A stretch of DNA of 64,000 nucleotides from contig CM049313.1 of assembly GCA_026874595.1 (NCBI GenBank), positions 57,803,159 to 57,867,158 of the forward strand, in the 5' to 3' direction. The stretch comes from Sipunculus nudus. Taxonomy: Eukaryota; Annelida; Sipuncula; Golfingiida; Sipunculidae. Position 1 is the stretch's first letter, and every line of letters starts with the position of its first letter. Shown here one piece after another: positions 6,055 through 63,646 of the stretch. Position numbers and translations under genes: made by a program. The notes beneath the pieces were generated by a model. That model was not told the DNA's origin. It ran no database searches and worked only from the letters and a program-made list of their open reading frames with translations.

Positions 6055-8002
6055 CTAGATATTTCTTGGCACCGCAGGTGCCATAGTATCCCCAGACAAT
6101 TAATCCCCCCCCCCTTTAAGAATAGGCCCCCCATCTTCAGCAACAATTAATATCAGACCACACTCATAGAAAAGGTCATTCTCATAGAAAAGGTCATGAT
6201 CCAAATTTCAATATACATCATCCCCTAACCCATGTCTATGTATATGCAAGAAATCTGTCCATTAGTTTTTGACTTATAATGCTCACAATACTGTTAAGTG
6301 GCAATGATGGGGTATTAAACGGCACGAAAACAAGTAAAAGAATAACAGGTGGCACCACCTGTTTCCTGTACATGACAACACTATCCAAGATCTTCGTTCA
6401 AGTTGATTTTTGGACCAATCAATGCATCCCTTATTGAGAAATTAATGATTTTGTGTGATTTTCACCATATATGGCAATATTCAAGGTCAAGGCCACTCAT
6501 TGGAAAGGTCATGACCCCTATTCAAATAAACATTATCCTATAACCCATATCCATGTATATGCATAATATGAAAGAAATTTGTCCATTAGTTTTTGACTTA
6601 TAATGCTCACAGTACTGATAAATGGCAATGATGGGGTATTAAACGGCACAAAACAAGTAAAAGAATAACAGGTGGCGCTACCTGTTTCCTGTACATGACA
6701 ATACTTTCCAAGATCTTCGAACATGTTGATTTTTGGACCAATGCATGCATCCCTTATTGAGATATTAATGATTTTGTGTAATTTTCACCATATATGGCAA
6801 TATTCAAGGTCAAGGCCACTCTAATAGGAAAGGTCATGACCCCAATTTATATATACATTATCCCATAACCCATGTCTATGTATATGCATAATATGAAAGA
6901 AATCTGTCCATTAGTTTTTGACTTGTAATGCTCACAGGTTATAAATGTACTGTGAAGTGGCAATGATGGGGTATTAAACGGCACGAAAACAAGTAAAAGA
7001 ATAACAGGTGGCGCCACCTGTTTCCGGTACATGACATTACTATCCAAGATCTTCGGTCAAGTTGATTTTTGGACCAATGCATGCATCCCTTATTGAGAAA
7101 TTAATTATTTTGTGTGATTTTCACCATATATGGCAATATTCAAGGTCAAGGCCACTCACTGGAAAGGTCATGACCCCTATTCAAATAAACATTATCCTAT
7201 AACCCATATCCATGTATATGCATAATATGAAAGAAATTTATCCATTAGTTTATGACTTATAATGCTCACAGTACTGATAAATGGCAATGATGGGGTATTA
7301 AACGGCCAGAAAACAAGTAAAAGAATAACAGGTGGCGCCACCTGTTTCCGGTACATGACATAACTATCCAAGATCTTCGGTCAAGTTGATTTTTGGACCA
7401 ATGCATGCATCCCTTATTGAGAAATTAATGATTTTGTGTGATTTTCACCATATATGGCAATATTCAAGGTCAAGGCCACTCTCATAGGAAAGGTCATGAC
7501 CCCAATTTAAATAAACATCATCCCATAACCCATATCTATGTATTTGCATAATATGAAAGAAATCTGTCCATTAGTTTTTGACTTATAATGCTCACAGTAC
7601 TGTCAAGTAGCAATTTTGGGGATATTAAATGGCATGAAAACAAGTAAAGCATAATAGGTGGCGCCACCAGTTTCTGGAACATGACAACCCTATCCATGAT
7701 CTTCGATCAACTTGATTTTGGGATCAATCCATGCAAGTTTTCTTGAGATATTTAAGAATTTGTGTGATTTTCCCCAAAATTGAACCTATTCAAGGTCAAG
7801 GTCACTCTCCTAGTTGAGGTCATGACCTCATTTTAAATAGGCGTTGTCCTCTCACCCATATCTATACATATACCAAGTTTGGTAAAGATCTGTGAAATAT
7901 TTTTTGAGTTATTGTGTCCAAAAGAAATCTCTGCGGCGGCGGCGGCAGCGCGACTGTGCCTAAACCATAGTATCTCCAGACTATGTCTGGCGATACAATG
8001 AT
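6055..8002 (+). mobile_element. Complete C-family hairpin-ended element, five ~325-bp units
   Basis: The 5' end holds a perfect hairpin GGCACC-GCA-GGTGCC (6,068-6,082) followed by the subterminal motif GTATCCCCAGAC (6,086-6,097). The 3' end holds the hairpin GTATCTCCAGAC-TAT-GTCTGGCGATAC (7,970-7,996), whose outer arm is the reverse complement of the 5' motif in 11 of 12 positions. A GCGGCGGCGG tract at 7,933 precedes it. The core is five tandem units anchored by ATGGGGTATTAAACGG at about 6,301, 6,624, 6,960, 7,283 and 7,610. Each unit carries one copy or variant of CAGGTGGCGCCACCTG. No coding capacity is seen. The architecture fits a non-autonomous rolling-circle (Helentron-like) element, which is inference. 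Confidence 0.75.
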
Positions 8003-9160
8003 GGTCTGAGGCAAAATGTATGGTTGTTGAGCTATCAGGAACTAATCCCACAGCTTGCTCGATACCTGTCAGTCTCAAAAGGAATACCACACAGGCCACA
8101 TATAAGGTCAAAATATAGCAAAAGATCAAGGAAATCCATGCAAGAATTATTGTGAAACGGGTGCTTCCATATTATTTTTTATTCAATTCAAGCCAACTGT
8201 ACTGAGCTTTCATAAATGATGGTCATATTTATTAAGAAATCTTTGACCCAATGCAAGATTACATTAATATACATCCCACTGCATTCACTTTAATAGTTCT
8301 TGAGATAATATGTTCTACAGGAATTTAAAGATGGCGTCCTGGTGGCCATATTGGATTTCTGACAGGTCAGAAATTGAACAACAAACATCCTCTAAAAGGT
8401 ACCAAACATCATAAAAAAATCACAGAAACTGTCCTGGCAAAAGGATTTCTAAAATGGCTACCTGGCAGACATAATGGTTTTCTGACAAGTCACACATCCT
8501 CCAATAAGACACTAAACTTGTAGCAATTGCTTCAAAGAATGTAACAGTTATGAATGTCCAAAACAATTCAAAAGGCATGATCAGGTTGGAGAGCTCTCAT
8601 ATCAGATTTATGAACATGCAAATGTAAAAAGTGCAAGTCCAATTTGTTTTAATTATCAGCTTGCTATTCAATGGGGTCAGCAGGGTAGGTAAACTGCAAA
8701 ACCTAAAAGAAAAGAAATGCAGAAAGCATCACTAAGAGTCTTGTAATCAAATAAAGCCATCCTAAATCCAGGTACAGACCCACATATTATCAGAACAAAC
8801 ACTTGCTGGTATATCTGATGATTTGTATAATAATATTCAGATATCTAGAAAACTAAGTTTATTGCTATGATTCCATGATATAAACTGCAAAATGTTCCCA
8901 TCATTTTATAAATCAGTAGCTAAACTTAACACTTAACTCTCATAGTCTTAATGCCTGGCCACAGCATTCCGGCAACAGTGTTTTTGTTATGCACTAATGA
9001 TATATTCTTATCACTCCATGAGCTGATACAAAAGGGAGTCATATATCACAAGTGTCACTGACAATTATGGGCACATAGTGAGATGTACCAGTTGTGAGTG
9101 CCATATGGATTTATATATACAAGAAAACAAGAAAAATAGAGATGGTCTACAAAATAAGTT
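8003..9160. other. Non-coding stretch with a diverged two-unit repeat
   Basis: No exon is supported. At 8,329-8,500 two diverged copies of an AAGATGGC..CCTGG..GCCATATTGG..TTCTGACA segment lie about 130 bp apart. The rest is AT-rich unique-looking sequence. Confidence 0.4.
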
Positions 9161-10212
9161 ATTGTGAACATCCCTGACCTATGACCTTGGCCTTTTGCCC
9201 ACATATCAACTGGATTCTTTCTAAATGATGGGTAACTACTAACCACTTACATCTGGCCGGGTGTAATTACTTGGCAACCAATGAGTAAATAACTTAGACC
9301 TGCAACCTTTTACCTCCTGACCAGCTGACCTCAAAATCAATTAGTTATTTCTTCATGCAAAAAGACCCATAAATATGAAGTTTGAATCAAATTCAGTGAT
9401 GCATAGATGTGGCATATGTGAAAAACTGAAGGTTTGGGTTGAACAGTTTCACTTGAAATATGTTCACAAGCATTTAGAACAATATTGTGACCTTGACCTT
9501 TGACCTTTTGAACTCAACATCAATAGGCTTCTTCTCCTATTGGTAGGTAAGCCATATATGACAGATATAAAGTATAGATTGAAAAGTTTGCTGAAAATGA
9601 CTCCACACAAGAAGAGGGTGCTGTGAACTTGACCTTTGACCTCAAAATCAACAGGTCTTTTCCCCTGTTGGCAGAGAAGCGATATCAGTGCTGAAAGGTT
9701 TAGCTTGAAATGTGTCCACAACCTTTTCAAAGAAGTGGATCCTGTGACCCTGACCTTTGACCTTGTGACCTCAACATCTATAGGATTCTTCTCCCACTTA
9801 GTAGGTGAGCTATCTGTGAAAGATCAAAGAATTGGGATGAAAGGTTTGGCTTAAAATGCATCCTGAGGCTTTTCAAAGAAGTTGGTTCTGTGACCTTGAC
9901 CTTTGACCTTGTGACCTCAAAATAATTATGGTTCTTCCCCTGTTGGTAGGTGAGCTGTATGTGGAAGATGGAAGGTTTGGGATGAAAATTTTGGCTAAAA
10001 GAATTATTTCTGGGGGGTGCAAACACACCCCATAACTTTGAGAATATAGGTTGCAGTGACCTAATTTCAGGTTTGCAAGGAGATCTTTTTAGAACCTCTA
10101 AATCTGCTTAGGGTTCATGGCCCTAGCCCCTATGGTTACGATTTGTGCCCTGCGCCGGACAAAGACCCATCGCTATAGCCCAGCATGACTGAAAGTCAGC
10201 TGAGCTAAAAAA
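9161..10212 (+). mobile_element. 5'-truncated A-family element with nuclear-receptor-like half-site array
   Basis: The 3' terminus matches family A. A GGTTACGATTTGTGCCCTG block (about 10,133) is followed by a reduced GCGCCGGACAAAGACC tail and a hairpin with arms AGCCCAGCATGACT (10,177-10,190) and AGTCAGCTGAGCT (10,194-10,206), then AAAAAA. Upstream are four or five degenerate units of about 115-150 bp, each with TGACCTTGACCTTTGACC or a close variant (9,488, 9,629, 9,744, 9,891; a weaker one near 9,176). No A-type 5' palindrome was found, so the 5' end is missing. The units are not coding. Confidence 0.7.
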
Positions 10213-12154: not shown

Positions 12155-14437
12155 CAAGTGACCCATGGGTCATGACGCTCAGCTGACTGGAAAGAGATTC
12201 GCCAAAGGAAATTTTATCATCTAAATGGTAGTATAAACCCATTCAACTGAAGCATCAAACAGATTAACCAACAGGCCAAGTTTGTGACTGTATTTATATA
12301 TCTCAAAAATAGAGAAAAAATGCATAAACTTTAAAAAAAAATACAGGTGGTTCCACCTGTCTGCAGAAACTAATAAAAACACTTAATGGTCAATATCCAT
12401 GCAAAGAATCATGGTGATCTCTGGATTAGTTGTTCAGATACTTCAGCTTTTGTATCAAATTTTCCATTATTCTGAGGGATACTTTGGAGTCCTATAGCTT
12501 GAAGGATATGGGTAACAGAGACCTAATTTCAGGTTTCCATAGACACTTTTCATTGGCCTACTTGCACGACAAGAATGGAGATTCTAGGTCCTGTTGTTAC
12601 AATCTGTGCCACATTAACAGATGACAGCATCCTTAAAGGTCTCAAAAATAGAGAAAAAAATTTGTAAAAAACCCCGAACAAATACAGGTGGTGCCACCTG
12701 TCTGCACAAACTGATGAAACACTCCATAATTAATATCCATGCAAAGAATCATGGTGATCTCTGCATTAGTTGTTCAGATACTTCAGCTTTTGTATCAAAT
12801 TGTCAATTATTCTGCGGGATACTTTGGAGTCCTATAGCTTGAAGGATATGGGTAACAGAGACTTAATTTCAGGTTTCCATGAAGACTTTTCATGGGTCAC
12901 CCAGTGTGTCAAGAATGAAATTCTAGGTCCAGTTGTTATGATTTGTGCCCAATTAACAAATGTTCATATCTTTAAAGATCTCAAAAATAGAGAAAAAATT
13001 TGTAAACAAACCCGAACAAATACAGGTGGTGCCACCAGTCTGTAGAAACTGATGAAATACTCCATGATCAATATCCATACAAACAATTATGGTGATCTCT
13101 GCATTAGTAGTTCAGATACTTCAGCTTTTGTAACAATTTTTCAATTATTCTGAGCTGTACTTTGGAGTGCCATAGCTCAAAGGATATGGGTAACAGAGAC
13201 CTAATTTAAGGTTTCCATGGAGAATTTTCATGGGTCTCCCTGTGTATCAAGAATGAAGATTCTACATCCAGTCATTACGATTTGTACCCTGTTGACAGAT
13301 AACTACATCCTTAAAGGTCTCAAAAATAGAGAAAATTAATTGTAAATATTTGAAAAAATACAGGTGGCACCACCAGTCTAAAGGAACTGATGGAACAACT
13401 CTTGATCAACATGTATGCCAAAAATCATGACCATCAGTGTTGTAGTTATTGAGATGTTGCAATTTGTTTTTATCAAATTTTCCATTATTCAGGGGCGTAA
13501 TGGGGAGCCAAATAGCTCAAAGGATACGGGTAACAGAGACCTTATTGCTGGTTTCCATGCAGACTTTTCATTGGTCACTCACTGTGTGAGTAATGAAGAT
13601 TTTAGGTCCAGTCTTTACAATTTGTGCCCTGTTGACAGATGTTCACAGTTTTAAAGGTCTCAAATATAGAGAAAACAATTCGTAAAAAATTGAAAAATAC
13701 AGGTGGCGCCACCAGTCTGCAGAAACTGATGAAACATCTCATGATCAATATGTATGCAAAAAATACTGACCATCAGTGATGTAGTTAATGAGATATTGAA
13801 GTTTTTGTATGAAATTTTTGACTATGAGATATTGAAGTTTTTGTATGAAATTTTTGACTATTCTGGGGGTTACTTTGGGGCCCAATAGCTCTAAGGATAT
13901 GGGTAACAGAGACCAAATTTCTGGTTTCCATGGAGACTTATCATAGGTCTCTCAGTGTGTCAAGAATTAAGATTCTAGGTCCAGTCTTTACTATTTGTGC
14001 CCTGTTAACAGATGTTCACATTTTTAAAGGTCTCGAAAATAGAGAAAAAAAATTGTAAAAAATTGAAAAATACAGGTAGCCCCACCAGTCTGCAGGAACT
14101 GATGAAACTTCTCATGATCAATATGTATGCAAAAAATCATGACCATCAGTGATGTAGTTAATGAGATATTGAAGTTTTTGTATGAAATTTTTTATTATTC
14201 TGGGGGGTACTTTGGGGCCCCATAGCTCGAAGGATATGGGTAACAGAGACCCAATTTCTGGCGTCCAAGGAGATTTTTTATGGACCTCTCAGAATGTAAA
14301 GTTACAAGATTCTAGGTCCAGGGGTTACAATTTGTGCCAGGTTAACGGACAGACGGACGGACAGACGGACGGACGGACAGACGGACAAAGAGTGATCACT
14401 ATAGCTCAGATGACTTACAGTCAGCTGAGCTAAAAAA
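12155..14437 (+). mobile_element. Complete A-family hairpin-ended element, six ~340-bp units
   Basis: The 5' end is ACAAGTGACCCATGGGTCAT with the palindrome TGACCCATGGGTCA (12,159-12,172) and the subterminal motif GCTCAGCTGA (12,177-12,186). The 3' end is a GACGGACGGACAGACGG microsatellite (14,345-14,387), then a hairpin AGCTCAGATGACT-TAC-AGTCAGCTGAGCT (14,403-14,431) and AAAAAA. The outer arm contains TCAGCTGAGC, the exact reverse complement of the 5' motif. The core has units anchored on the CAGGTGG..CCACC palindrome at about 12,344, 12,684, 13,023, 13,361, 13,700 and 14,072, giving periods of 338-340 bp and one of 372. Open frames inside are repeat shadows. This is the best intact copy of the family in the window. 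Confidence 0.8.
13790..13860 (+). repeat. ~34-bp duplication inside one A-element unit
   Basis: The segment ATGAGATATTGAAGTTTTTG plus its continuation into TGAAATTTTTGACT occurs twice back to back. This accounts for the single 372-bp unit among 338-340-bp units, and it is a local slippage event after the array formed. Confidence 0.8.
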
Positions 14438-16725: not shown

Positions 16726-16727
16726 AA

Positions 16728-17712
16728 ACAAGGGACCCATGGGTCATGGCGCTCAGCTGAAGTTTGATATTTTTGCAAATGCAAAATATACAAAATATTC
16801 TATTGTAATGTTTTTCATTTATATTAGCATATGAGAAGCTAGGAGGAAAGGGGCCCTCCTACTTGATATAGTCAATTTCTAAATATATGATTGCAAAACT
16901 AATACTCTGACAAGACTGTCATGAAGAAAAACAGTAAAGTTTTGAGTTACTTTGATGCATATGAAAAAATTAATGATGGACAGGCCAGTGGACAGAATAG
17001 ACTAATAAATTTATTTCACTTTCAAAAATGCATTTACGGTAAGTTCATATATAAGCCTATTTTTTTAGCATATCCACTTTTTTCATTAATAAATTTTATC
17101 TGATTCATTTTTTTATTTACAATATTTATATTTAAAATTTGTAATAAAAAACTCTGAAAATATAAGTTAAATATCAGAATTCTAGGTTGCAATTATAATA
17201 TATCCAGAGTGTAATATCCTTGGCTAGATATAAACAACACTTGACATGGTGTATGAAAACTTGAATAAAGCCACTTTTTCAATCAATTCCTTTGAAATTT
17301 CTGATTTTAAAAGATTAATTCCTTATCTATATATGCTGTGAAAAAATTTGGGCCCATAACTTCAAAACAATGAGCAAAACTTACCTAATTTTTGGTATGT
17401 TTATAGAAAATGTACGGAAGAATATGAATACTAAATATTATCAAAAACAGATCAGGGTTTTGATATTAGGCAGCCTTGAAGTGTTACAATGGCTATTTTT
17501 ATGGAAAACTCCTTAATATCTAGAAGGAACAAAGTCCTAGTGACCCAATTTTTGGTATGGTAGGACATTTTTTTTTTAAACATCTAACAGAAAGCAAAAT
17601 TTTGGAATTGTAGGTCCAACGGTTTCAAAACATGCTCTGGTAAGGGCCAGACGGCCGACAGACAAAAGACCACAACTATAGCTCAGATGACTTATAGTCA
17701 GCTGAGTTAACA
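16728..17712 (+). mobile_element. Short complete B-family element
   Basis: The 5' end AACAAGGGACCCATGGGTCA contains GACCCATGGGTC (16,734-16,745), followed by GCTCAGCTGA. The 3' end has a reduced CCAGACGGCCGACAGAC tract, then a hairpin AGCTCAGATGACT (17,680-17,692) TAT AGTCAGCTGAGTT (17,696-17,708). The interior contains one B unit, including the phrases TTTTGATATTAGGCAG and GGGCCCATAACTTC. At about 985 bp it is much shorter than the 2.7-kb B element at 20.7 kb, so it is probably a one-unit version. Confidence 0.75.
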
Positions 17713-19429: not shown

Positions 19430-20241
19430 CAGTATACATATGCAAAATTTCAGGGGGATATGTCAAATCAGTCCTAAGATATAAGCCTGAATGTCTGCAG
19501 CGTAAACATAAATGTAGGTGGCCCCACCTACATTTATGTCTGCAGCCTAAACATAAATGTAGGTGGCCCAACCTTCCACAAAATCCAGAAAGCTATCCAA
19601 GATGTATAAACATGCAAAATTTTAGGCAGATAAGTCACACCACTACTAAGATATGAGGGATTTTATCCCATGGCAGACAAACAGATGGAGGCTGTGCAAA
19701 ATTTTTTGCAGGTGGCACCATCAGTTTTGCATATGATAAAGAGCTATGTAAGATCTATACACATGCAAAATTGCAGAGGGATATGTCAAACCAGTCCTGA
19801 GATATAAACCTGAATGTCTGCAGCGTAAATATGAATATAAGTGGCGCCACCTACATTAATATCAGCAGCGTAAACATAAATGTAGGTGGCCTCACCTGCC
19901 ACAAAATCCAGAAGGCTATCCAAGATGTATAAACGTGCAAAATTTCAGGCAGAAAAGTCAAACAACTACTGAGATATGAGTGATTTTATCCAATGGCAGA
20001 CAAACAGATGGACGCTGTGAAAAAATGGTTGCAGGTGGCGCAACCAGTTTTGTGTATGATAAAGAGCTATGTGAGATCTATACACATGCAAAATTTAGGA
20101 GGATACAACAAATCAGTCCTGAGATAAAAGCCTGGATGTCTGCAGCATTAACATTAATGTAGGTGGCGCCACCTGCCACAAAATCCAGAAAGCTATTCAA
20201 GATGTATACACATGAAAAATTTCAGGTGGACAGATGCTGTG
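19430..20241 (+). mobile_element. G-family element, left part (5'-truncated, interrupted)
   Basis: Tandem units carry GGTGGC..CCACC palindromes and the phrases TGCAAAATTTCAGG, GATATAAGCCTG and CAGACAAACAGATGGA. The array stops at GCTGTG (20,236-20,241), where an A/B-type 5' end begins. It resumes at AAAAATGGTTGCAGGTGG (26,376). Joining the two restores the phrase seen elsewhere in the family (GCTGTGAAAAAATGGTTGCA, 20,013), so the intervening 6.1 kb is an insertion. The 5' hairpin of family G is absent, so the left end is truncated. Confidence 0.7.
19506..19539. repeat. 34-bp near-perfect palindrome
   Basis: Two perfect 16-bp arms (ACATAAATGTAGGTGG and its reverse complement) are separated by CC. 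A G-family unit boundary has been folded back on itself here, probably by an inverted duplication of the unit's CCACC-containing segment. Confidence 0.8.
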
Positions 20242-20745
20242 AACAAGAGACCCATGGGTCACATCGCTCAGCTGAATTTTGGAAAATATTAGTAACTGCA
20301 AAATATTTTTATTTCTTTTGTTTTTTCATGTATATTATCATTAGAAAAGCTATGAGGAAATGGCCTTGCTAAAATGAAACTCTGTAAATTATAGAATAAT
20401 TGACATGAGCTAAACCATTTAGTGATGCACCAAGGGAAAAAATAGGCCTACGTTAAGTGTTAAATAAGAGTAACATTTCATAAACATATAATGTGTGAAG
20501 GTAATTAAGTTTTCAAAAGTTAAATATATGGCCATATGAGTTAAAAATTAATCCCACAAAGTTTGACCAATATTCCTAATTTTAATACTAAGATAACAGT
20601 GTTATTCACACCTAGGCCCTGCCAACTTTAAGAGATATGAATAAAATGCTACAAAGTATTTATATCTTCTAAAATCTTGTCAGTAAGCAATTACATTAGA
20701 TCCTAATATTTTATCACATTTGAATATTAGCCGGGATTTTCTTTA
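20242..20745 (+). mobile_element. Outer B-family element, 5' part
   Basis: The sequence begins AACAAGAGACCCATGGGTCA (palindrome core GACCCATGGGTC at 20,249-20,260) followed by GCTCAGCTGA. It resembles the start of the short B element at 16.7 kb. It is cut off at 20,745 by a second B 5' end. Its 3' part is proposed to be 25,269-26,375, which ends in a B-type hairpin exactly where the G array resumes. Confidence 0.6.
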
Positions 20746-23700
20746 AAACAAGGGACCCATGAGTCACGGCGATCAGCTGTTATATATGATAAAAAATATG
20801 ATTTGGGAAAGAGGCACATGCTTGTTTTGTGTGGTAATAAATATAAGCTTTATTATGAGTTGTTGGTTTTTAGCTTATGTATGATTTTGATAGTATCTTT
20901 GGAGACAGGGAAGAGGATTGATTTCATTTATTTTATTAACAAATGGAGTGCTACTGTCGCACAGATTTTGACTTGGCTATATAACTTATAAGCAGCACAT
21001 ATAATAAAAGAGTTTAACTATTTATTAAAATTTAATAACAAATATTGTGCCAATATAATTTTTATTTAAAAAAAATAATAAGAAAATCATATGGTTTTTT
21101 AAAATAAAATATAACTGAAATGATTATTAAAATAATATTATAGAATATATTCATGAATGCATTCATGAATACATTTTGAAAGTATCTGCACTGGTATTCA
21201 AATACTTTCATTTTGACCTGAATTCCCAGTCTTATGCAATAAAATTTTTTGATGCAGTACATATTCATATTCGTATTCAAATACATTTGCAAAGCATACG
21301 CACCATGTCTAGTATTTATTCAGTTTTAGCCAAACAATGATGATGAGAATCCAGAATATACAAAATTCACAAATTTAAATAATGATCATAAGTACCTGGT
21401 TTCATGGCTTTTATTTATATTAAAAAAAATAAATGTATTTTATTCACTTTGGACTACTTTCACAACAATCCACACACTAGACACAGTAGGAATCTAGATT
21501 AATATTATCAACTGCATCTTTGTCTATCATTAATTTCCTTCATATGATCCCTAATGATTAGTAATGAATAATATGATTTATTTTTTATCATTAAAATTGA
21601 ACTGAAAAATACCATAGGTGACTGCATGGTGTTATTTGGAATAACATTGACATTGACATTATATCCATCCATACAAGATTCTTACATGATCAGTAACTGC
21701 AAGTTAATTTTCTGTTACTCATCAACTAACAAATTCCTTTTCTATTAATTTTTCTTTAATTTGTTATTAAAAACCAATAAAAATTATTAATTTATTGTTT
21801 TTTGTTATGTTGTTTTTCAAAACAACTACTAGATGAGTTGGGTTGGACACCTTGATCAACTGTGGCTGGGCATTAGCTGCCTGGCTGCCCCAGTGTATGC
21901 CTCGCCTCAAGCATGCATAATTTGATGAAAGGTCAACAAGGTCAACATACAGGTGACTGAAGAGGGGCTGGATTAAGCCTGGGTCTGACATGGTCTCATA
22001 AAAACATTAATAAAAGCTACAATATTTGGCCAATTTCTTTCAGCTTTCTAAACTACAAAGATGAAATCCTTATGTGTGCATGTTATGAAAATTATTTCAA
22101 CAGTGCTCTCAGGAAACAAATGTGCCATGGTCAAAGTTGGGCAAAATTTAAGGTACTAATTTTATATTTATACTAATAACTTATAAAATTTGAAAAATTC
22201 AGAACTAATTTTTGGTATTTAATTGAATCTTGATTAAATAATGTTACATCCCTGACAAAAAATCTCTAGCTTTAGCAATCCTCTTGTTAAGGGAGTAAAT
22301 ATATTTCTTGATTTGTTAAAAAGTGCATTATGTTTGGGCCCATAACTTAAAACAATTACGCAATACTGACATCATTTCTAGCATGTGCATAGGGAATGTA
22401 TAAAAAAATATGTATATTATATATGATCAAAGTCAGATCAGTGGTTTTGATATTAGGCAGTCTTACAGTGTAACAATGGGTTTTTAATGGAAAAATGAAG
22501 TTTTTCATTAATATTTAGAAGGAATTAAGTCCTAGTGATCAAATTCTTGGCATGGTTGGGGATTTTGGAGACATCTAACTGTATGCTAAATTTAAGGAAC
22601 TTAGAGCTGAAGCTGGGGAGCTGAGCTCTAGCAAACTGCATAACACTAGCTTGATGTAAACTTGATGTGACATGGTGCTTGAAAATTTGAATAAAATCTA
22701 GTTTTTGATCAACTGGTTTTAAATTTTTGGTGTTAACAGACAAAATACTAACAAAAACATGCTGTAAAAATTAAATCCACAGTACTTACAGGAAAAAAAA
22801 CGTGCCATAGTCAAACTTTGGCAAAATTTAAGGTACCAATTTTATATTTTTGCCAATATTTAAAAAAATTCAACAGATTTTGATCTAATTTTTGGTATAC
22901 AATTAAATTTTGATCAATTTAAATTGTATTACTGAAACTAGATGTGTCAGAACGACACGAATGCCCCCACCTTGGGCAAATTAGAAACATTTGTAAAATT
23001 TGGAAAATTTTTTAAGTTCAGGAGGTGTCGTATGGTCAAAAGTAGGTCAACAAGGGCAAAATGCAAACTCGATCTGTAACGGGTCATTATCAAGCAACAC
23101 ACCAAAAATCATGCCAGTATATGCAGGCATTGTGAAAAAAAAAGTCCATAAATGTGCATTTTCCATAAAAATTTCTGTCTTTCATGAAATTTTCTATGTT
23201 TAGGAGCCCTAAAACAATCAAAAGTAGGTCAACCGGGATGAAACGCAAACTCGATCTGTAACTGTCATTATCAGTACAAAAAAATCCAGTACATATGCAT
23301 TTGTTATGAAAATTTATATTTTTCATGAAACTTTCTATGTTCAGGAGCAGTCAAATGGTCAAAAGTAGGTCAACAAAACAAGAACTCGATCTGTAACTGG
23401 TCATTATCTGCCTACACACCAAAAATCAGGCCTGAATCTGCAGGCACTGCAAAAAAAAGTCCATACATGTGCACCTTTTTATGAAATTTTCTATGTTAGA
23501 GCACCGTCAAACGGTCAAAAATAGGTCAACTGGGACAAAACATGAACTTGATCTGTAACTGGTCATTATCTGCCCACACACCAAAAATCAGGTCAATATC
23601 TGCAGGTATTGTGAAGAAAAGTCTGTACAAGTGTATTTGTCATGAAAATATATATTTTACATGAAATTTTCTATGTTCAGGAGCCGTAAAACAGTCAAAA

Positions 23701-26375: not shown

Positions 26376-26963
26376 AAAAATGGTTGCAGGTGGCACCACC
26401 AGTTACGCATATGATAAAGAGCTATGTGAGATCTCTACACATGCAAAATTTCAAAAGGATATGTCAAACCAGTCTTGAGATATAAGCCTGTATGTTTTCA
26501 GCCACCTGTCATAAAATCGAGAAAGAAAGCTATCCAGGATGTATACACATGCATGATTTCAGGTGGATAAGTCCAACCAATGTAGAGATAGGAGTGATTT
26601 TATCCCAAGGCAGATAAACAGATGGACGCTGTGCAAAAATGGTTGCAGGTGGTGCCACCATTTTTAGTATAAGTTATAAAGCTATTCAAGGGCTACATTT
26701 GTGCAAAATTTTTAGCCTGATCAGTCAAACAGTACCCAAGATATTTGGGTTTATTTGTGGAAACAGAAGCACAAATGGATGCTGGGCAGAGGAAAGGTTA
26801 GACGTCAACCAAAAATGAGGGCACAGCAATTCACATGTGCCCTGATCATAATTCCGAATTTTAAAAATTCCACCAGGTGGTTACAGAGGAGTTCTCCAGA
26901 AATCTATGCGGCGGCGGACTGAAAACATAGTATCTGCAAAACTTTGTTTTGGCGGATACAATA
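26376..26963 (+). mobile_element. G-family element, right part with 3' end
   Basis: This continues the G array of 19,430-20,241. The 3' end has GCGGCGGCGGACTG (26,908), then CATA and a hairpin GTATCTGCAAAAC (26,930-26,942) TTT GTTTTGGCGGATAC (26,946-26,959), then AATAATAAG. This terminus matches the reverse-complemented ends at 31.6, 51.9 and 62.2 kb. Confidence 0.75.
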
Positions 26964-31587: not shown

Positions 31588-31638
31588 CTAATTGTATCCG
31601 CCAAAACAGAGTTTTGCGGATACTATGTTTTCAGCTGG

Positions 31639-31675
<37 letters not shown>

Positions 31676-50122: not shown

Positions 50123-50128
<6 letters not shown>

Positions 50129-50196
<68 letters not shown>

Positions 50197-51925: not shown

Positions 51926-53374
51926 AATTGTATCCGCCAAAACAGAGTTTTGCGGATACTATATGTTTTCAGCTGCACGCCACCGCCGCCGCGTAGGTGT
52001 CCGGAGAACTCCTCCATAACTGCTGGGCGGAATTTTACGAAACCAGGGATTATGTTGGGGTCACATGTGAACTGCTGCGCCCCGATTTTGTTTTGACCTC
52101 TGACCTTTCCTCTGCGCTCTGCGTCCGTTTGTGCGTCTGTTTCCACACATAAACCCACATATCTCGGGAACCATTTGACCGATCAGGAAATTTTTTTGCA
52201 CAAATGTAGCCCTTGGAGAGCTTTATAACATACACAAAAAATGGTGGTGCCACCTGCAACCATGTTTGCACAGTGTCCATCTGTTCGTCTGCCTTGGGTT
52301 AAAATCACTCATATCTCTGCAGTGACTAATTCACCTGAAATTCGGCATGCGTAAACATCCTGGATAGCTTTTCTGATTTTATGATAGGTGGCGCCACCTA
52401 CATTCACGTTTACGCTGCAGACATCCAAGCTCATATCTCGGGAACAGTTTGACCGATTGGGCCAAAATTTTGCATGTGTATAGATCTCACATAGCTCTTC
52501 ATCATACGCAAAACTGGTGGCGCCACCTGCAGCCATTTTTGCACAGTGTCCATCTGTAAGTCTCCCTTGGGTTAAAATCACTCATATCTCTGCAGTGACT
52601 TGACTAATTCACCTGAAATTCGGCATGCGTATACATCCTGGATAGCTTTTCTGATTTTATGACAGATGGCGCCACCTACATTCATGTTTACGCTGCAGAC
52701 ATCCAAGCTCATATCTCGGGAACCGTTTGACCGATTGGGCCAAAATTTTGCATGTGTATAGATCTCACATAGCTCTTTATCATACGCAAAACTGGTGGCG
52801 CCACCTGCAGCCATTTTTGCACAGCTCCTGTCGGTTTGTCTGCGATGGGATAAAATCACTCATATCTCGTCAGTGGTTTGACATATCTGCCTAAAATTTT
52901 GCAGGTTTATACATCCCCGACAGCTCTCTTGATTTTATGACAGGTGGCGCCACCTGCATTCTAGTTTATGCAGCAGACATCAAAGCTCATATCTTGGGAA
53001 CCGTTTGACCGATTGGGCCAAAGTTTTGCATGTGTATAGTTCTCACATAGCTCTTTATGATACGCAAAACTGGTGGCGTCACCTGCAACCATTTTGCTCA
53101 GCGTCTATCTGTTTGTCTGCCACGGGCTAAAATCACTCATATACATGTAGTGGTTTGACTTATCTGCCTTAAATTTTGCATATGTATACAACTTGGACGG
53201 CTTTCTGGATTTTGTGGTAGGGGGGGCAACCTACATACACAATTTGGCTGCAGACATCCATGCTAATATGCAACACTCTATTTCCCCTTGCTACTCAATC
53301 CATGCCTCATTTCACCCGTTCCACTCTGATTTAGGCGGATACACGTAGTCGCTTGTCGACTACCCGTATTCTAG
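51926..53374 (-). mobile_element. Complete G-family element, copy at 52 kb
   Basis: Minus-strand 5' end: CTAGAATACGGG (53,374), a hairpin GTAGTCG/CGACTAC (53,363-53,345) and GTATCCGCC. Minus-strand 3' end: a hairpin (51,959-51,930) with arms GTATCCGCAAAAC and GTTTTGGCGGATAC, preceded by a short GCGGCGG tract. The array has about five units with GGTGGCGCCACC palindromes and is close in sequence to the copy at 31.6 kb. Minus-strand frames of 90-93 codons in successive units are shadows. Confidence 0.8.
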
Positions 53375-55030: not shown

Positions 55031-55504
55031 TCTATAGTTGTGGTCCATCTGTCCATAGATCTGGCACGTTTTGAAACCTTAAGACCTAGGAATCCGAAAT
55101 TCGGCATAATGTTAGATGTCCCCAAGATCTCCAACCAAGTCCAAAACTGGGTCTTTGCGACTTCATTCCTTTGAGATATTAAGAAAAACCTTAATTTTTT
55201 ATTATAAACCTATTTTCACACTTCAGGACTGCCTAATATCAAAACCACACATCTGTTTTTCCTAATATTTACCATAAATATTCCTCTATATAGTTCCTAT
55301 GTACATGCCAGAAATTAGGTCTATATTTTATAATTTTAATAAGTTATGAGCCCAAACAATGCATTTTGCAAAAAATTCAGGAAGGATATTTGATCACTTA
55401 ACGCAAAACATGTTAAAGCTAAGGACTTTTTTCTAGTATTATAACTTTAATTAATCAAAATTAAATTGTATAACAATAATTAGATCAAAATCTTTTAAAT
55501 TTAT
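55031..55504 (-). mobile_element. Minus-strand B element, 3' part
   Basis: Reverse complement of the B unit: GGTTTCAAAACGTGCC, TTTTGATATTAGGCAGTCC and GAGCCCATAACTT-like phrases. The 3' terminus stops within ACCACAACTATAG (55,031-55,043), so the terminal hairpin is lost. Its left border continues seamlessly with the B sequence at 58,408 once the A element between them is removed: GCTAATATTTTAAA joins AAATTTAAAAGATTTTGATC, as in the uninterrupted copy at 25,848. Confidence 0.7.
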
Positions 55505-58407
55505 AGCTCAGCTGACTGTAAGTCAACTGAGGTATAGGAATGGTGCTTTGTCCGTCTCGGCATCCAGGCGTCCGACAGTCCGTTAGCAGGGCACAAATCG
55601 TAACTGCTGGACGTAAATAAGTGAATATCCAGGGAGGTCAATAAAAATCTCCTTGGAAACCTGAAATTAGATCACTGCCACCTATATCCTCTGAGCTATG
55701 GGGCTTGAAAGTACCCCACAGAATAATCAAAAATATAATACAAAACCTCCAATATCTTGATAATTAATGTATGGATTGTCATGAATTTTGCCTTGAAAAT
55801 TGAGCATGACTAGTTTTGTCCATTCCTGAAAAGTGGTGGCACCACCTGTATTTTTTGTTATTTTAATGAATATTTTTTAATAATTTTACTATAAAATGAC
55901 AACAATCATGTCAGTTTCTCAGCTGTAAATACATCTAGTGTCCCAAAACTTGGTGTGTTTATTGATCACAAGTGGATGCCATATAGTTATCACCCTGTCT
56001 GCCTGTTTGTCTGTCTGTCTGTCCATCCACACAAATTCATTTCCAGATGATAACTCCAGGTTGTATTGATAAATGGATTTCAAACTTGACTTACATATGG
56101 CCCACCATACGCTCCCGAGGCAGCGGAAATCTTGCGCTTCTAAAGAAGCAACTGATTTTCACGCTGCCAGCTGTGACCGTTTATGATATATTTAGACACC
56201 AGATGGCGGTTCGTTGTCCACTGAAATAAATGTGCGTATGATGTGACAAGCAGCCAATCAGATGCCAATAAACAAACACTCGACAGGCATCCTGGCTCCG
56301 CCCATTGCTGCGCTTCAAGCGTCGCTTGACGATTTTTCCGGTCGAATTTAAATTGCTCCCTCTGCATTCTCGCATCATCGACTATGACATTATGACATTA
56401 TGACTGTGTTAGCGTAGCCATGTATCTGTTGTCTGCAGAACTGAAACCATCCAGCGAGGTGCACGCAGCCTTTGTTGTTACGTTTCGTTTGAATTACAGC
56501 TCACCGGCCGAGCATCCTATGCGCCCAAGGCCTTAAGCAAACCACGTCAGGGGCAATTCTCTCTGAGCCTGTGGCCTGTTCAGACGGTTACGCTGGGGGA
56601 TGAGCTGTCACTCAAAAAGAAATGAATATGATTGGCTCCGTGTATTCCTCGCTTGGCTTTGTCTTCCACCACAAGGTCTCATCTGATTGGACAATAATAC
56701 AGTGCTCCCCTCTGGTGTTGCAATTCAGGATACGAGGTCATAACAAACAGCGCCTTACGATATAGGTAGTAGCCCTATAGGTAAAGCGCTGTGTAAAGAG
56801 CGTAGGCCCACCACTAAAGCAAGAACCTTTATGATTTTGGGGTCATGAGGACAAAGGTCAAGGTCACAGGACTCACTTTTTTAAAAAGATTATGGCTGCA
56901 TTTTAAGCCAAGCTTTTCATCCCACATTTAGCTGACTTGCCATTATGGGGAGAGCATTAATGAATTTGAGGTCACATGGTCAAAGGTTAAGGTCACAGGG
57001 GCCATCTGTTCACAAAATCCAGTTTAGTTTGACATAGTGGTTTCAAACCTAACTTATATATGACTTACCACTAAAGTAAGAAATGTGTGGATTTTGGGGT
57101 CCAACGGTCAAAGGTCATGGTCACAGGACTAACTTTTTCAAAAAGATTATGGCTGCATTTTAAGCCAAGCTTTTCATCCCAAACTTTCCATCTTCAACTG
57201 TGTACCCACTTATTTTTGAAAGATTGTGGATGCATTTTAAGCCAAACTTTTCATCCCACATTTAGCTGACTTGCCATTATGGGGAGAGCATTAATGAATT
57301 TGAGGTCACATGGTCAAAGGTCAAGGTCACAGGGGCCATCTGTTCACAAAATCAAGTTTAGTTTGACATAGTGGTTTCAAACTTAACTTATATATGACTC
57401 ACCACTAAAGTAAGAACTGTGTGGATTTTGGGGTCCAACAGTCAAAGGTCATGGTCACAGGACTCATTTCTCTAAAAAGAATACATATGTATTTGAAGCC
57501 AAACTTTTCGTCCCAAACCTTCCATCTTTAACTGTGTACCCACTTATTTTTGAAAGATTGTGGATGCATTTTAAGCCAAACTTTTCATCCAAAACCTTCC
57601 ATCTTCCAAGTATAGCTGAGCTGCCAATAGGGGAAGAACCTGATTGATTTGGGGTCACAAGGTCAAAAGTCACAGGGACCCATCTGTCCACATTTTTGTA
57701 CCTGGATGATAACTCCAGTTTGGATTGACATATTGGTTTCAATTTTGACTTATATATGACCCGCCAATAATGTAAGAACTCTTTAGATTTTGGGGTCATC
57801 GGGCCAAAGGTCAAGGTTACAGGACCCACTTCTTTAAAAGGATTATTGATGTATTTTAAGCCAAACTTTCTGTCTCAAACATTCTATCTTCCAGATGTTG
57901 CTCACCTGCCAAAAATGGAAGTAACTGATGGATTTTGGGGTCACAAGGTCAAGGTCATGGGGGCCATCAATCCACATATTAGTTTCCAGATGATAACACC
58001 AGTTTAGTTTGAAATATTGGTTTCAAACTTGACTTATGTATGCCCACCACTAAAGTAAGAACTGTTGATTCTGGGGTCATGAGATCAAAGGTCAAGGTCA
58101 CAGGACCCACTACTTTAGAAATTTTGTGGATGCATTTTAAGCCAAACTTTTCATCTCAATCCTCCCATCATCAACATGTGGTGCACCTGCCAATAGGGGA
58201 AGTTTCCTTTTGATTTTGGGGTTATAAGGTCAAAGGTTAAGGTCACAGGGCCCATCCATTCACAAATTAGTTTATTAATGATAACTCCAGTTTGGGTAGA
58301 CAGGTGGCTTCAAACTGATCACAGGACCAATATTTTGGAAAACCTCATAAACATATATCCTTATAGACAAATGCAGCTGAGCGTTGAGACCCATGAGTCC
58401 CTAGTTT
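55505..58407 (-). mobile_element. Minus-strand A-family element with nuclear-receptor-like half-site array (carries MITE copy 2)
   Basis: The minus-strand 3' hairpin is at 55,533-55,505 (outer arm AGTCAGCTGAGCT). The 5' end reads TAGGGACTCATGGGTCTCAA followed by GCTCAGCTGC, ending near 58,407. One 340-bp A-type unit (GGTGGCACCACC at about 55,835) lies next to the 3' end. The rest is roughly ten degenerate units with GGTCAAAGGTCAAGGTCACA (for example 57,312) and the phrases TTTTAAGCCAAACTTTTCAT and CCACCACTAAAGTAAGAAC. A GTCTGTCTGTCTGTCC microsatellite is at about 56,018. Without the 697-bp MITE the element is about 2.2 kb. Confidence 0.75.
56108..56804 (-). mobile_element. MITE-like DNA transposon, copy 2 (TACGCTC ends)
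   Basis: It is the inverted relative of 36,708-37,409, alignable end to end with scattered differences. The termini TACGCTCCC...GAGCGTA are flanked by a perfect 9-bp duplication GGCCCACCA (56,099-56,107 and 56,805-56,813). Removing it restores CATATGGCCCACCACTAAAG, which matches neighbouring array units (58,037; 57,397). The subterminal AGCGCTTTACC..CCTATAG-type hairpin is conserved at the right end. No transposase is present. Confidence 0.85.
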
Positions 58408-60836
58408 AAAATATTAGCAAAAATAAAAAAAATTGATACCTTAAATTTTGCCCAACTTTGACCAAGGCACTTTTTTTCCTGTAACTGCTGTGGATATAAT
58501 TTTCACAGCATGTTTTTGTTAGTGTTTCATCTGTTAACACCAAAAATTTGAAACCAGTTGATCAAAACTGTAGATTTTATTCAAGTTTTCAAGAACCATA
58601 TCACATATTGTTTACATCAAGCTAGTGTAATGCAGTTTGCTAGAGCTCAGCTCCCAAGCTTCAGCTCTCAGTTCCTAAAATTTGACATACAGTTAGATGT
58701 CTCCAAAATCCCCTACCATGCCAAGAATTTTGTCACTAGGACTAAATTCCTTCAAGATATTAATGAAAAACTTCATTTTTCCATTAAAACATGTTGTTAC
58801 ACTTCAAGACTGCCTAATATCAAAACCACTGATCTGACTTTGATCAAATATAATATACATATTTTTAAATACATTCGCTATGCACATGCCAGAAATGATG
58901 TTAGTAAAGTGTACTTTTTTTAAGTTATGGGCCCAAACATAATGCACTTTGTAAAAAAATTAAGAAATATATTTATTGCCTTAACAAAGGGATGGCTGAA
59001 GCTAGAGATTTTTTGTCAGTGATGTAAAATTATTTAATCAAGATTCAATTGTTAACCCAAAATTAGTTTTGGATTTTTCAAATTCTATAAGTTATTAGTA
59101 TAAATATAAAATTAGTACCTTAAATTTTGCCCTACTTTGACCATGGCACGTTTGTTTCCTGTGAGTACTGTTGATATAATTTTCATATCAGCCACACATA
59201 AGGCCAAAATAAAAAAAAAGTATGGTTCTCAGGCATTTTTTTTCAGAAATCAATGTGGGCGGGCGCTTTTTTTATTTTAATTTTTTTGGTATGTTTCAAT
59301 TAAAATGTCAAATGATAAGGGAAAAGCATGAAAATAACAGTTTTATTTTGCTAAATAATTAAAAGCACTACAAAACAAAGGAAATTGTATGGTTTTATCT
59401 TCTTGAAAGAAATGTCGAAGCAGCATCTGCTCAAAATTGGAAAGTTTTTATTAAAAATCAAAATAAAAAGTTTTGATGCGGGGGTTTAAAATTGATGCGG
59501 GCGGTGCCTGAGAACCATACCTTTAATTTTTTTTGGCCTAAGGATTTCAGCTTTTAGTTTAGAAAGCTGATAGAAATTGGCCAAAAATTGTAGCTTTTAT
59601 TAATGTGTTTATGAGATCATGTCAGACCCAGGCTCTCCCCAGCCCCTCTTCAGTCACCTGTATGTTGACCTTTTGACCTTTCAGCAAATTATACACGCTT
59701 GAGGCGAGGCATACACTGGGGTAGCCAGGCAGCTTATGGCCAGCCACAGTTGATCCAGGTGTCAAACCCTACTCATCTAGTAGCTGTGTCCAACAACATA
59801 ACAATAAACAATAAATTAATAAATTGTTATTGGTTTTTAATAGCAAATTAAAGAAATATTAATAGAAAAGGATTTTTAGCTGATGAGTAACAGGAAATTA
59901 ACTTGCAGTTACTGATGATGTAAGAATCTTGTATGAATGGATAGAATGTCACGTATTCCAAATAACACAATGCAGTCACCTATGGTATTTTTCAGTTCAA
60001 TTTTAATGATTAAAAAAATAATTCATATTATTCATTACTAATCATTAGGGATTCTATGAAGGAAATTAATGATAGACAAAGATGCAGTTGATAATTTAAA
60101 TCTAGATATCTACTGTGTCTAGTGTGTAGACTGATATGAAAGTAGTCCAAAGTGAATATATTACATTAATATAAATAAATGCTATAAAACCAGGTACTTG
60201 TGATCATAATTTAAATTTGTGAATTTTGTATATTCTGGATTCTCAACATCATTGTTTGGCTAAAACTGAATAAATACCAGACATGGTGTGAATACTTTGC
60301 AAATGTATTTGAATATGAATATGAATATATACTGTATAAAATTTCTTGCATAAGAATGGGAATTCAGGTAAAAATGAAAGTATTTGAATACCAGTGCAAA
60401 TACTTTCAAAATGTATTCATGAATGCATTCATGAATATATTCTATAATATTATTTTAATAATCATTTTTGGTTATATTTTATTAAAAAAATATGATTCTC
60501 TTATTATTTTTAATAAAAATTATATTTGGCACAATATTTGTTATTAAATTTTAATCAATAGTTAAACTCTTATATTATATGTGCTGCTCATAAGTTATTT
60601 GGCAAAGGCAAAATCTCTGTGACAATAGCACTCCCATTTGTTATCAAAATAAATGAAATCAATCCTCTTCCCTGTCTCCAAAGATACTTTCAAAATCATA
60701 CATAAGCTAAATACCAACAACTCATAATACAGCTTATATTTATTACCACACAAAACCAGCATGTGCCTCATTTTCAAATCATATTTTTTTATCAAATATA
60801 ACAGCTGAGTGCCGTGACCCATAGGTCCCTTGTTTT
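58408..60836 (-). mobile_element. Minus-strand B element, 5' part (carries Harbinger-like MITE)
   Basis: The minus-strand 5' end is ACAAGGGACCTATGGGTCAC (about 60,835) followed by GGCACTCAGCTG. It aligns to 20,746-22,840 over about 2 kb with few differences, in opposite orientation. It is interrupted by a 337-bp MITE at 59,202-59,538 and by the A element at 58,407. The 121-codon plus-strand frame at 58,558-58,923 is antisense to the repeat and has a diverged counterpart in the 22.5-kb copy. It is not called as a gene. Confidence 0.75.
59202..59538. mobile_element. 337-bp Harbinger-like MITE with TAA target duplication
   Basis: The ends GGCCAAAATAAAA and TTTTTTTTGGCC are inverted, and the repeat continues for ~35 bp through GTATGGTTCTCAGGCA. 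TAA lies on both sides (59,199-59,201; 59,539-59,541). The sister B copy at 22,070-22,072 has a single TTA (TAA on the other strand) at the same place: an empty site. A 3-bp TWA duplication with GGCC-type ends is the signature of PIF/Harbinger (Tourist-type) elements. No coding capacity is seen. Confidence 0.88.
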
Positions 60837-60880
60837 CATAATTATTATAACACAAAAGTAATGTATAGTCATATTGCAAC

Positions 60881-61789: not shown

Positions 61790-62192
61790 GTTTGTAATAA
61801 ATAATTCAGCAGAAGAATGTTCACAGTAATCACCACAGCAGATATACTGGTAAAATGTGACAGAAGGCATAATGTATAAGATACCATCTCCAGCGTGACA
61901 GGTTACTCCGGTTACACTGTGAGTCTAACACTAACAGATCTTGAATAAACAAGCTTCTCTAACAATTCCAGTAGGAACAATGCCACACTGCCACTCTCTG
62001 TATATTTTCTGCATTGTGCAAACCACACTGATCTGTAGGTTCAATCGCCACAAAAGTCCAGCATCCTAAAACTTGTCAGTAAAGTAAACTTCCCCGGCAA
62101 GGCTTTTCTAATTACTTGATGCATACACAAAATATACAAAATTATTTTTTGGGTGCACTTTTACATACATAAATGATGCCTCCCTCATAATA
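61790..62192. other. Start of first coding intron
   Basis: About 400 bp of intron-like sequence between the exon and a G element. No further exon is visible. Confidence 0.4.
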
Positions 62193-63646
62193 TTTGTATC
62201 CGCCAAAATGAAGTTTTGCGGATACTATGTTTTTGACCCGGTTCTGCCACCGCCGCGTTCTTTTCCGGAGAATTCCTCTGAGACTTCTGAACGGATTTTT
62301 CCGAAATTTACACAAATTATCGGGTCACATGTGAACTATGCCTAACCAATTGGTGTTGACCTCTGACCTTTCCTCTCTGCCCAGCGTCCATTTGTGCGTC
62401 TGTTTCCACACATAAACCCTATCTCGGGAACCGTTTGACCGATCAAGAAAAACATTTTGTACAAATGTAGCCCTTGGATAGCTTTAAAACATACACAAAA
62501 AATGGTTGGGCCACCTGCAACCATGTTTGCACAGTGTCCATCTGTTTGTCTGCCTTGGGTTAAAATCACTTATATCTCTGCAGTGGTTTGACTAATTCAC
62601 CTGAAATTCGGCATGCGTATACATCCTGGATAGCTTTCTTGATTTAATGACAGGTGGCGCTACCTACATTAACGTTCACCCTGCAGACATCAATGCTTAT
62701 ATTTCAGGACTGGTTTGACGTATCTTCCTGAAAATTTGCATGTGTATAGATCTCACAGATCTCTTTATCATATGAGAAACCAGTGGCGGCACCTGCAACC
62801 ATTTTTGCATAGCATCGGTCTGTTTGTCTGCCATGAGATATAATCACTCATATCTCGGCGGTGGTTTGACATATCTGCCTCAATTTTTGCGTGTTTATAC
62901 ATCCTGGACAGCTTTCTTGATTTTATGACAGGTGGCGCCACCAACATTTTAGTTTACGCTGCAGACATCAAGCTCATATCTAGGGGACCGTTTGACCGAT
63001 TGGGCCAAATTTTGCATGTGTATAGATCTCGCATAGCTCTTTATCATTCACAAAACTGGAGGGGCCACCTACAACCATTTTTTCACAATGTCCGTCTGTT
63101 TGTCTGCCCTGGGCTAAAATCACTCATTTCTTGGCAGTGCTTTGACTTATCTGCCTAAAATTTTGCGTGTTTATATATCTTAGATAGCTTTCTCAATTTT
63201 TTTGGCAGGTGGCGCCACCTACCTTTATGTTAATGCTGCAGACATTCAGGCTTATATCCTAGGACCGGTTGGACATATCCCCCTGAAATTTTGCATGTGT
63301 ATAGATCTTACATAGCTCTTAATCATATACAAAATTGGTGGAGCCACTTGCCATCATTTTTGCACAAGTCCTTCTGTTTGTCTGCTGTGGGATAAAATCA
63401 CTCATATACATGTAGTGGTTTGACTTATTTGCCTTTAAATTTTGCATATGTATACAACTTGCACAGCTTTCTGCATTTTGTGGTAGGTGGCGCAACCTAC
63501 ATACACATTTTGGCTGCAGACTTCCATGCTAATATGCAAAACACCTCACTCTATTTCCCCTTGCCGCTCAATCCATGCCTCACTTCACCGTTCCACTCTG
63601 ATTTTTGCGGATACATGTAGTCGCTTGTCGACTACCTGTGTTCTGG
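62193..63646 (-). mobile_element. Complete G-family element, older copy at 62 kb
   Basis: Minus-strand 5' end: a hairpin GTAGTCG/CGACTAC at 63,635-63,617. Minus-strand 3' end: a hairpin at 62,225-62,196 preceded by a GCGGCGG tract. Five or six diverged units carry GGTGGC..CCACC palindromes (for example 62,653; 62,931; 63,209). Divergence between units is higher than in the 31.6-kb copy, so this insertion is older. It sits in the presumed first coding intron of the 61.7-kb gene. Confidence 0.75.

What the first reader, a model, noticed from the sequence alone, without database searches (positions are those of the whole stretch)
6055..63646. At least four sequence-unrelated repeat families share one terminal design: 5' hairpin, subterminal motif, tandem core, and a 3' hairpin that carries the motif's complement
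Seen directly. A/B: palindrome TGACCCATGGGTCA plus GCTCAGCTGA at the 5' end, AGTCAGCTGAGCT at the 3' end. C: GGCACC hairpin plus GTATCCCCAGAC, then GTCTGGCGATAC. D: GTGTC hairpin plus ATGCCCCC, then GGGGGCAT. G: GTAGTCG hairpin plus GTATCCGCC, then GGCGGATAC. In each case the 3' hairpin is followed by an A-rich or AT-rich end, and C and G also share a GCGGCG tract and CATAGTATC before the hairpin. Helentron-type rolling-circle elements are known to have subterminal inverted repeats and a 3' hairpin, so one replication machinery could mobilise all these families. That they share one source element is inference.
Basis: partly seen in the sequence, partly recalled or inferred. Interest (0 to 1): 0.8.

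Follow-up and report, generated by a model that had tools for sequence, protein, structure and literature searches.

The report
Rolling-circle transposons (HINEs) and autonomous partner
These repeats are a known kind of non-coding 'copy-by-rolling-circle' jumping DNA, and the same genome holds gene-carrying Helentrons with the same ends as one of the families; the end design itself is already described in oysters, mites and flies.

Summary
In the usual orientation each family starts in T-rich DNA with a subterminal inverted repeat (subTIR) that folds as a hairpin, carries a tandem core in most copies, and ends with the subTIR complement, a palindrome, and C-T-(A/T)-G followed by T. That is the published anatomy of HINEs, non-autonomous Helentrons (PMC4067079, PMC7492417). 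It is no chance pattern: A/B palindrome 10,844 places against 3 for the reversed control, G terminator 14,218 against 0, D terminator 4,743 against 0. Empty sites show insertion in T runs and no clear target duplication. I found an autonomous partner for the A/B family: a ~14.9-kb Helentron with an open 2,342-residue Rep/helicase frame, the A/B 5' and 3' ends, and a tandem array homologous to that of window element B. A second Rep lineage has the A2-type end. Partners of C, D and G were not found, so 'one machine for all' is not shown. Extra: tandem cores of B, C and G share the palindrome GGTGGCGCCACC; GGTGGNNCCACC occurs 35 times in the window against 0 in 20 shuffles.

The parts
5884..10206 (-). 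HINE A (A/B-type ends); contains nested C
   Evidence: 5' AGCTCAGCTGAC preceded by T7, 3' TGACCCATGGGTCACTTGT
6055..7996 (-). HINE C, ~326-bp tandem core, nested in A
   Evidence: subTIR GTATCGCCAGAC / GTCTGGGGATAC (1 mismatch), hairpin GGCACCtgcGGTGCC, CTAG|TT
12155..14431 (-). HINE B, ~340-bp tandem core; 5' part homologous to the autonomous A/B element
16729..17707 (-). HINE A5 (A2-type ends), 979 bp, no tandem array listed by TRF
20244..26374 (-). HINE A1, inserted in a G element; contains A2
20748..25263 (-). HINE A2, nested in A1; contains D
22938..24787 (-). HINE D, ~179-bp tandem core, nested in A2
   Evidence: genome-wide terminator count
19433..20243 (-). one part of a G copy split by A1 (canonical 3' portion); its own 3' end not located
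   Evidence: self-BLAST
26375..26962 (-). other part of the split G copy, with its 5' end
27363..28457 (-). G27, decayed G copy
   Evidence: subTIR only 6 bp
31593..33432 (+). HINE G31, 280-bp tandem core
51929..53374 (+). HINE G51
62196..63646 (+). HINE G62 (ends CTGG)
55505..58403 (+). HINE A4, nested in A3
55043..60834 (+). HINE A3 (A2-like), interrupted by A4 and by a TIR-like insert at 59203-59539; its own 5' end not located
390..422 (-). A/B-type 3' terminus of a further copy, 5' end not located
   Evidence: 4 edits

Best explanation
The repeats are HINEs: non-autonomous Helentrons that move by Rep/helicase rolling-circle replication. Canonical layout: T-rich flank | 5' subTIR + its inverted copy (hairpin) - GTCC-type microsatellite (A/B) - tandem array in most - 3' subTIR complement - palindrome - C-T-(A/T)-G | T. 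For the A/B ends the machinery is an autonomous Helentron of the same genome (C17:35.62-35.64 Mb, ~14.9 kb, 2,342-residue frame) whose ends coincide with those of the HINEs; B has the 5' end and an array related to that of such an element and lacks the Rep gene. Shown: anatomy, copy number, insertion in T runs at four sites, shared boundaries of autonomous copies, Rep/PIF1 domains. Inferred: that Rep nicks at these termini, a circular or single-stranded intermediate, and that C, D and G use Helentron Rep proteins too.
For: Anatomy in 12 copies with both ends; T first in the 3' flank in 12 of 12 if A4's end is read as CTAG; T directly before the 5' end in 8 of 12 with the boundaries as set (A in D, G27 and A5; C in A1). 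Genome counts: 10,844 v 3 (A/B palindrome), 7,159+7,059 v 0 (G), 2,357+2,386 v 0 (D). Empty sites: D in A2, A4 in A3, A1 in G against paralogues in the window; G in one autonomous copy against four copies without it, flanks 91-99% identical (junction letters printed for three). Autonomous element: Pfam Helitron_like_N 5e-27, PIF1 7e-23; VEFQQRGSPHIH fits the Helentron Rep motif quoted in PMC4067079. Five other copies 98-99% identical to the query stop at query 1024-1028, right after CTTGT, and flanks then differ (40 of 1,990 candidates scored); of 12 fetched loci 11 show the end with at most 3 edits, L059 does not. Of these six copies (query included) five have a listed Rep domain ~4.7 kb upstream on the same strand (coordinates; none listed near the C8 copy). 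Three copies have the outer 5' end AGCTCAGCTGACTGAAAGTCA after TTTTT with different upstream flanks. B aligns to it for 1,338 columns at 73% from its 5' end. Second lineage: two Rep copies 99% identical up to query 494 = last T of CTTGT, and 37 further places share q1-357 at 93-95%; 33 of 34 second pieces end at q495-498 (40 of 1,854 candidates scored).
Against: No circle or transposition event was seen. Filled sites carry one or two Ts more than empty sites (read by eye), so a TT duplication cannot be told from terminal Ts of the element. The endonuclease domain in the A/B protein is below Pfam's cut-off (20.5 v 24.5 bits), though above it in the two cluster-1 proteins. Window A-type copies share only 33-51 bp of the 3' end with the autonomous ends. 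The 37 places were not read for coding capacity; by eye none is within 10 kb of a Rep match listed, itself a capped list. No autonomous copy for C, D, G; a D end 10.7 kb after a Rep domain turned out to abut an A2-type end.
Confidence: 0.94

Rival explanations
1. All four families (A/B, C, D, G) are trans-mobilised by one and the same autonomous Helentron that reads the hairpin plus CTWG|T rather than the sequence.
For: Common C-T-(A/T)-G|T ending (11 of 12 copies) and common layout in all families.
Against: The two autonomous ends resolved are both A/B-type; subTIRs differ between A/B, D and C/G; the genome has several Rep lineages whose ends I did not reach.
Confidence: 0.15
2. The elements are MITE-like TIR transposons or foldback elements.
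For: Inverted repeats at both ends.
Against: Inverted repeats are asymmetric (terminal at 5', starting ~32-44 nt before the 3' end), no target duplication beyond possible TT at four sites; a TIR-like insert in the same window (59203-59539) does show a 5-bp duplication against its empty paralogue, so the method would have seen one.
Confidence: 0.02
3. The shared design is chance or composition.
For: Single short hairpins are common in AT-rich DNA; shuffles of the window gave up to 4 rows in the blind scan.
Against: Thousands of copies of 31-32-nt terminators against 0 for the reversed control.
Confidence: 0.01

Closest known systems
Cg_HINE elements of Crassostrea gigas (PMC7492417; section 7 and passages read)
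   Same: 5' subTIR + IR + GTCC/GTCY microsatellite, tandem array, 3' subTIR + palindrome, TT target without duplication, several sequence-unrelated families, related ends with unrelated arrays.
   Different: There ten autonomous Helentrons could not be related to any Cg_HINE ('remains unresolved'); here the A/B family is linked to an autonomous Helentron. The C-T-(A/T)-G|T ending and the GGTGGCGCCACC core palindrome were not in what I read.
HINE-Mo / DINE-1 and Helentrons of mite, Culex and Drosophila (PMC4067079; passages read)
   Same: subTIRs, 3' palindrome, T-rich target, variable Ts at the boundary, Rep motif with S between G and P, HINEs as deletion derivatives; OTU-like proteins are also named there.
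   Different: Here a tandem array inside the autonomous element with a second internal 5' end and an N-terminal Herpes_teg_N match, neither in the passages read.
Helitron2-type FoHeli of Fusarium (PMC5148889; abstract and passages read)
   Same: Asymmetric terminal inverted repeats and hairpins at the termini.
   Different: End in ATTTT or CTCCTGT, other targets, no tandem core in the passages read.
Pearl elements of bivalves (seen only as mentioned in PMC7492417 and PMC12628747 passages)
   Same: Recalled: short tandem core between conserved ends.
   Different: Not compared by sequence here.

Membership tests
HINE / Helentron | subterminal inverted repeats, hairpin-forming at the 5' end | tested here: met
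   11 of 12 copies 9-16 bp; G27 decayed
HINE / Helentron | palindrome or stem-loop near the 3' end | tested here: met
   decayed in some copies (e.g. G27, A4)
HINE / Helentron | T-rich / TT target, no target duplication | tested here: met
   four empty sites, 1-2 extra Ts unresolved; no empty paralogue for C and A2
HINE / Helentron | autonomous Rep/helicase partner with the same ends (A/B) | tested here: met
HINE / Helentron | autonomous partner with the same ends (C, D, G) | tested here: inconclusive
   not found in the Rep loci read; cluster-1 ends not reached
HINE / Helentron | Helentron Rep motif (S between G and P) | tested here: met
   VEFQQRGSPHIH; one search also for L030, L032, L034
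HINE / Helentron | C-terminal endonuclease | tested here: inconclusive
   A/B protein 20.5 bits, cut-off 24.5; two cluster-1 proteins 43-48 bits
HINE / Helentron | rolling-circle intermediate | not testable with these tools
   needs reads or a junction PCR
Canonical Helitron (Helitron1) | 5' TC, 3' CTRR, A|T target | tested here: not met
   no 5' TC and T-run target; CTAG of C, D and G does fit CTRR, CTTG does not
TIR/MITE element | terminal inverted repeats with fixed target duplication | tested here: not met

The most novel reading that the evidence does not exclude
The palindrome A-GGTGGCGCCACC-T, repeated once or twice per monomer in tandem cores that share little or nothing else (B, C, G), and present in the array of the autonomous A/B element, is a conserved protein-binding site that different Helentron families have each kept or gained; it fits the nine-base core AGRKGGCRS of the published CTCF consensus on both strands, so the arrays may act as dispersed chromatin-factor sites or as a replication signal.
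Probability: 0.3. Interest if true: 0.65.

Novelty: new member of a known kind. Interest (0 to 1): 0.42.

Why it matters
In the oyster study the autonomous partner of tandem-repeat-carrying HINEs was left unresolved (PMC7492417, passage read). Here an autonomous Helentron and HINEs share exact ends, and a tandem array related to that of HINE B is part of the autonomous element, which argues that at least this array came with the element rather than being captured from a host satellite. A common core palindrome in otherwise unlike arrays would offer a testable reason why such arrays are kept.

Tried and rejected
Considered and rejected: TIR/MITE and foldback (asymmetric ends, no clear target duplication); canonical Helitron (no TC, T-run target); chance (counts). 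A D terminator on the same strand 10.7 kb after a Rep domain at C7:48.15 Mb looked like a D partner, but the stretch fetched shows an A2-type 3' end abutting the remaining part of a D element, so it is no evidence for D. A weak 5'-end candidate in L039 was dropped because homology with the paralogue lies also upstream of it; the real 5' end came. An internal second 5' end at canonical 2963 was set aside for the outer one at 2239. Cluster-1 Rep elements (L035-L037) did not show their ends in the stretches read. No Rep match lies in the window (150 of 195 candidates scored). Not done: genome counts of AGGTGGCGCCACCT and of the C terminator, because the machine did not complete them; genome-wide alignments of each family; species identification ('bivalve-like' is inference from resemblance to oyster HINEs).

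Literature: the motif GGTGGCGCCACC occurs in 1 paper of the held library, on a bacterial chitinase, seen as a listing, so no description was found there; a search on CTCF, Helitron and mollusc terms was seen as a 12-row listing of 1,476 papers, plus passages of PMC9023564. CTCF consensus seen in passages of PMC6746451; only the core matches, the five bases before it mostly do not (read by eye). Searches were listings; PMC8268682 and PMC12628747 were seen as passages.
Full report
Observation. Scanning both strands with edits allowed recovered further copies and their boundaries. In all, 12 copies with both ends could be delimited; others have one end only (window 390-422, A3, the split G). Nesting is deep: D lies in A2, A2 in A1, A1 in a G copy; C lies in A; A4 lies in A3.

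Orientation. Two published descriptions fix the convention: HINEs begin with a subTIR close to the 5' terminus, accompanied by its inverted copy and a microsatellite, and end with the second subTIR some tens of bases inside the 3' terminus, followed by a palindrome (PMC7492417; PMC4067079).

More than chance. SubTIR lengths exceed shuffled ends in most copies (9 of 12 with at most 7 of 200 shuffles; D 10, A2 22, G27 196). A blind search for the full design gave 8 rows (five distinct 3' ends) against a mean of 0.8 rows (0-4) in 20 shuffles. Genome-wide (1,426,538,692 bases, window at C8:57,803,159-57,867,158): A/B palindrome 10,844 exact places, control 3; G 31-nt terminator, at most 3 mismatches, 7,159 forward and 7,059 reverse, control 0; D 32-nt terminator 2,357 and 2,386, control 0. 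The C terminator search did not complete.

Insertion sites. Paralogues in the window give empty sites for D (in A2), A4 (in A3) and A1 (in G). A cleaner case: the autonomous copy at C9:52.35 Mb holds a G element, and four sister copies (C1, C5, C8, C17), whose flanks are 91-99% identical, do not; the junction letters were printed for C1, C5 and C17. Read by eye in canonical orientation the targets are T runs of 2 to 7, the filled sites have one or two Ts more than the empty ones (plus a stray A or C in two cases), and nothing else is duplicated. C-in-A and A2-in-A1 had no empty paralogue in the window. With the boundaries as set, the 3' flank begins with T in 12 of 12 (A4 when its end is read as CTAG) and the base before the 5' end is T in 8 of 12. 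A separate TIR-like insert at 59203-59539 shows a 5-bp duplication against its empty paralogue, so duplications are visible by this method.

Autonomous partner of A/B. PF14214 finds 143 Rep matches in the genome (150 of 195 candidates scored), several in open frames over 2,000 residues, none in the window, and 0 of 14 control genomes ring. Of four 10-kb stretches first read, L038 (C17) carries the A/B 3' end ~1 kb after the stop of a 2,342-residue frame on the same strand; the other three did not show it. Further upstream lies the A/B 5' end with the GTCC microsatellite and a tandem array. Pfam: Helitron_like_N, PIF1, DUF6570, Herpes_teg_N, Exo_endo_phos below its cut-off. A DNA search with 1,041 bases reaching over its 3' end found 47 matches (40 of 1,990 candidates scored). 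Five other copies are 98-99% identical and end at query 1024-1028, just after CTTGT. In 15 places the main match is confined to q870-1032 (103-169 bases), 13 of them reaching q1024-1032, as deletion derivatives would; the rest match other or longer parts. The fetched loci show the same terminus followed by unlike flanks; one (L057) sits in what looks by eye like a G element. Of 12 fetched loci, 11 have the end within 3 edits and L059 lacks it. Three copies (C17, C5, C1) have the outer 5' end after TTTTT with unlike upstream flanks, and each has a second, internal 5' end after part of the array; the 5' stretches of C9 and C8 did not reach the outer end. From outer 5' end to CTTG the C17 copy is about 14.9 kb, including a nested G. 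Window element B aligns to it from its 5' end for 1,338 columns at 73%, and the monomers align (score 239 against a null maximum of 18). Thus B looks like an internally deleted relative, and the tandem array is a part of the autonomous element.

Second lineage. Downstream of the Rep frame at C7:71.19 Mb lies the A2-type end. A search with 560 bp around it (40 of 1,854 candidates scored) shows that the Rep copy at C3:10.58 Mb matches at 99% and stops at base 494, the last T of CTTGT; the C7:70.98 Mb copy matches beyond, as a segmental duplicate would. Thirty-seven further places share bases 1-357 (within a few bases) at 93-95%, and 33 of 34 second pieces end at 495-498. Whether these 37 lack coding sequence was not read; by eye none lies within 10 kb of a Rep match listed. 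Window A5, A2 and A3 match this end best (94-97% over 34-36 bp); A and B match the C17 end (90-93% over 42-51 bp). So what window copies have in common with the autonomous copies at the 3' end is only ~33-51 bp.

What is not shown. No partner for C, D or G. A D terminator near a Rep domain proved to belong to a D element abutted by an A2-type end. Transposition, nicking and circles are inferred from the family.

Extra observation. GGTGGNNCCACC occurs 35 times in the window, 0 in each of 20 shuffles; 32 of the 35 lie in the B, C and G copies delimited here (including the split G copy), 2 in a G-like stretch at 53.5-54.2 kb and 1 in A4. With the palindrome masked, C-G scores 11 against a null maximum of 14 and B-G 13 against 17; C-B scores 17 against a null mean of 11.4 and maximum 19, so a faint kinship of C and B is not excluded. 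B and the autonomous array do align (239). Three pairs with D pass their null maximum slightly: B-D 19 v 15, D-autonomous 17 v 16, D-t1652 18 v 17. The null (60 shuffles a pair) used shorter sequences than the observed comparison, which favours passing. The D, A4 and t1652 monomers lack the palindrome, and so do the cluster-1 stretches. The 9-base core fits AGRKGGCRS of the CTCF consensus CCASYAGRKGGCRS (PMC6746451) on both strands; this is a lead only, since a palindrome of this composition could serve other proteins and the first five positions mostly do not fit.

Verdict. A well-founded observation of a known kind of element, read in reverse; made more useful by the autonomous partner, which the oyster study could not link, and by the shared core palindrome.

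Noticed in passing
window 6348-63219 (35 places): Palindrome GGTGGNNCCACC, mostly GGTGGCGCCACC, in tandem monomers of B, C and G and once in A4, whose sequences are otherwise unlike.
   Followed up: partly
L044/L038 composite canonical 2239 and 2963; L069/L064 and L070/L066: Autonomous A/B Helentrons carry a second, internal copy of the 5' end within or after the tandem array, as expected from rolling-circle passes over repeated 5' ends.
   Followed up: partly
window 59203-59539: TIR-like insert with AT-rich ends GGCCAAAAT...ATTTTTTTTGGCC and a 5-bp target duplication inside HINE A3.
   Followed up: partly
L036, L037, L035: Another large Helentron lineage (Rep, PIF1, OTU, Exo_endo_phos) with long tandem arrays after the frame; ends not reached.
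   Followed up: partly
L071 1150-1184: A2-type 3' end abutting part of a D element, ~10 kb after a Rep domain at C7:48.15 Mb: perhaps an autonomous A2-type copy inserted in a D HINE.
   Followed up: partly
window 36703-37409 and 56108-56811: 88% identical stretches in opposite orientation; the second lies inside HINE A4, the first has no recognised ends.
   Followed up: no
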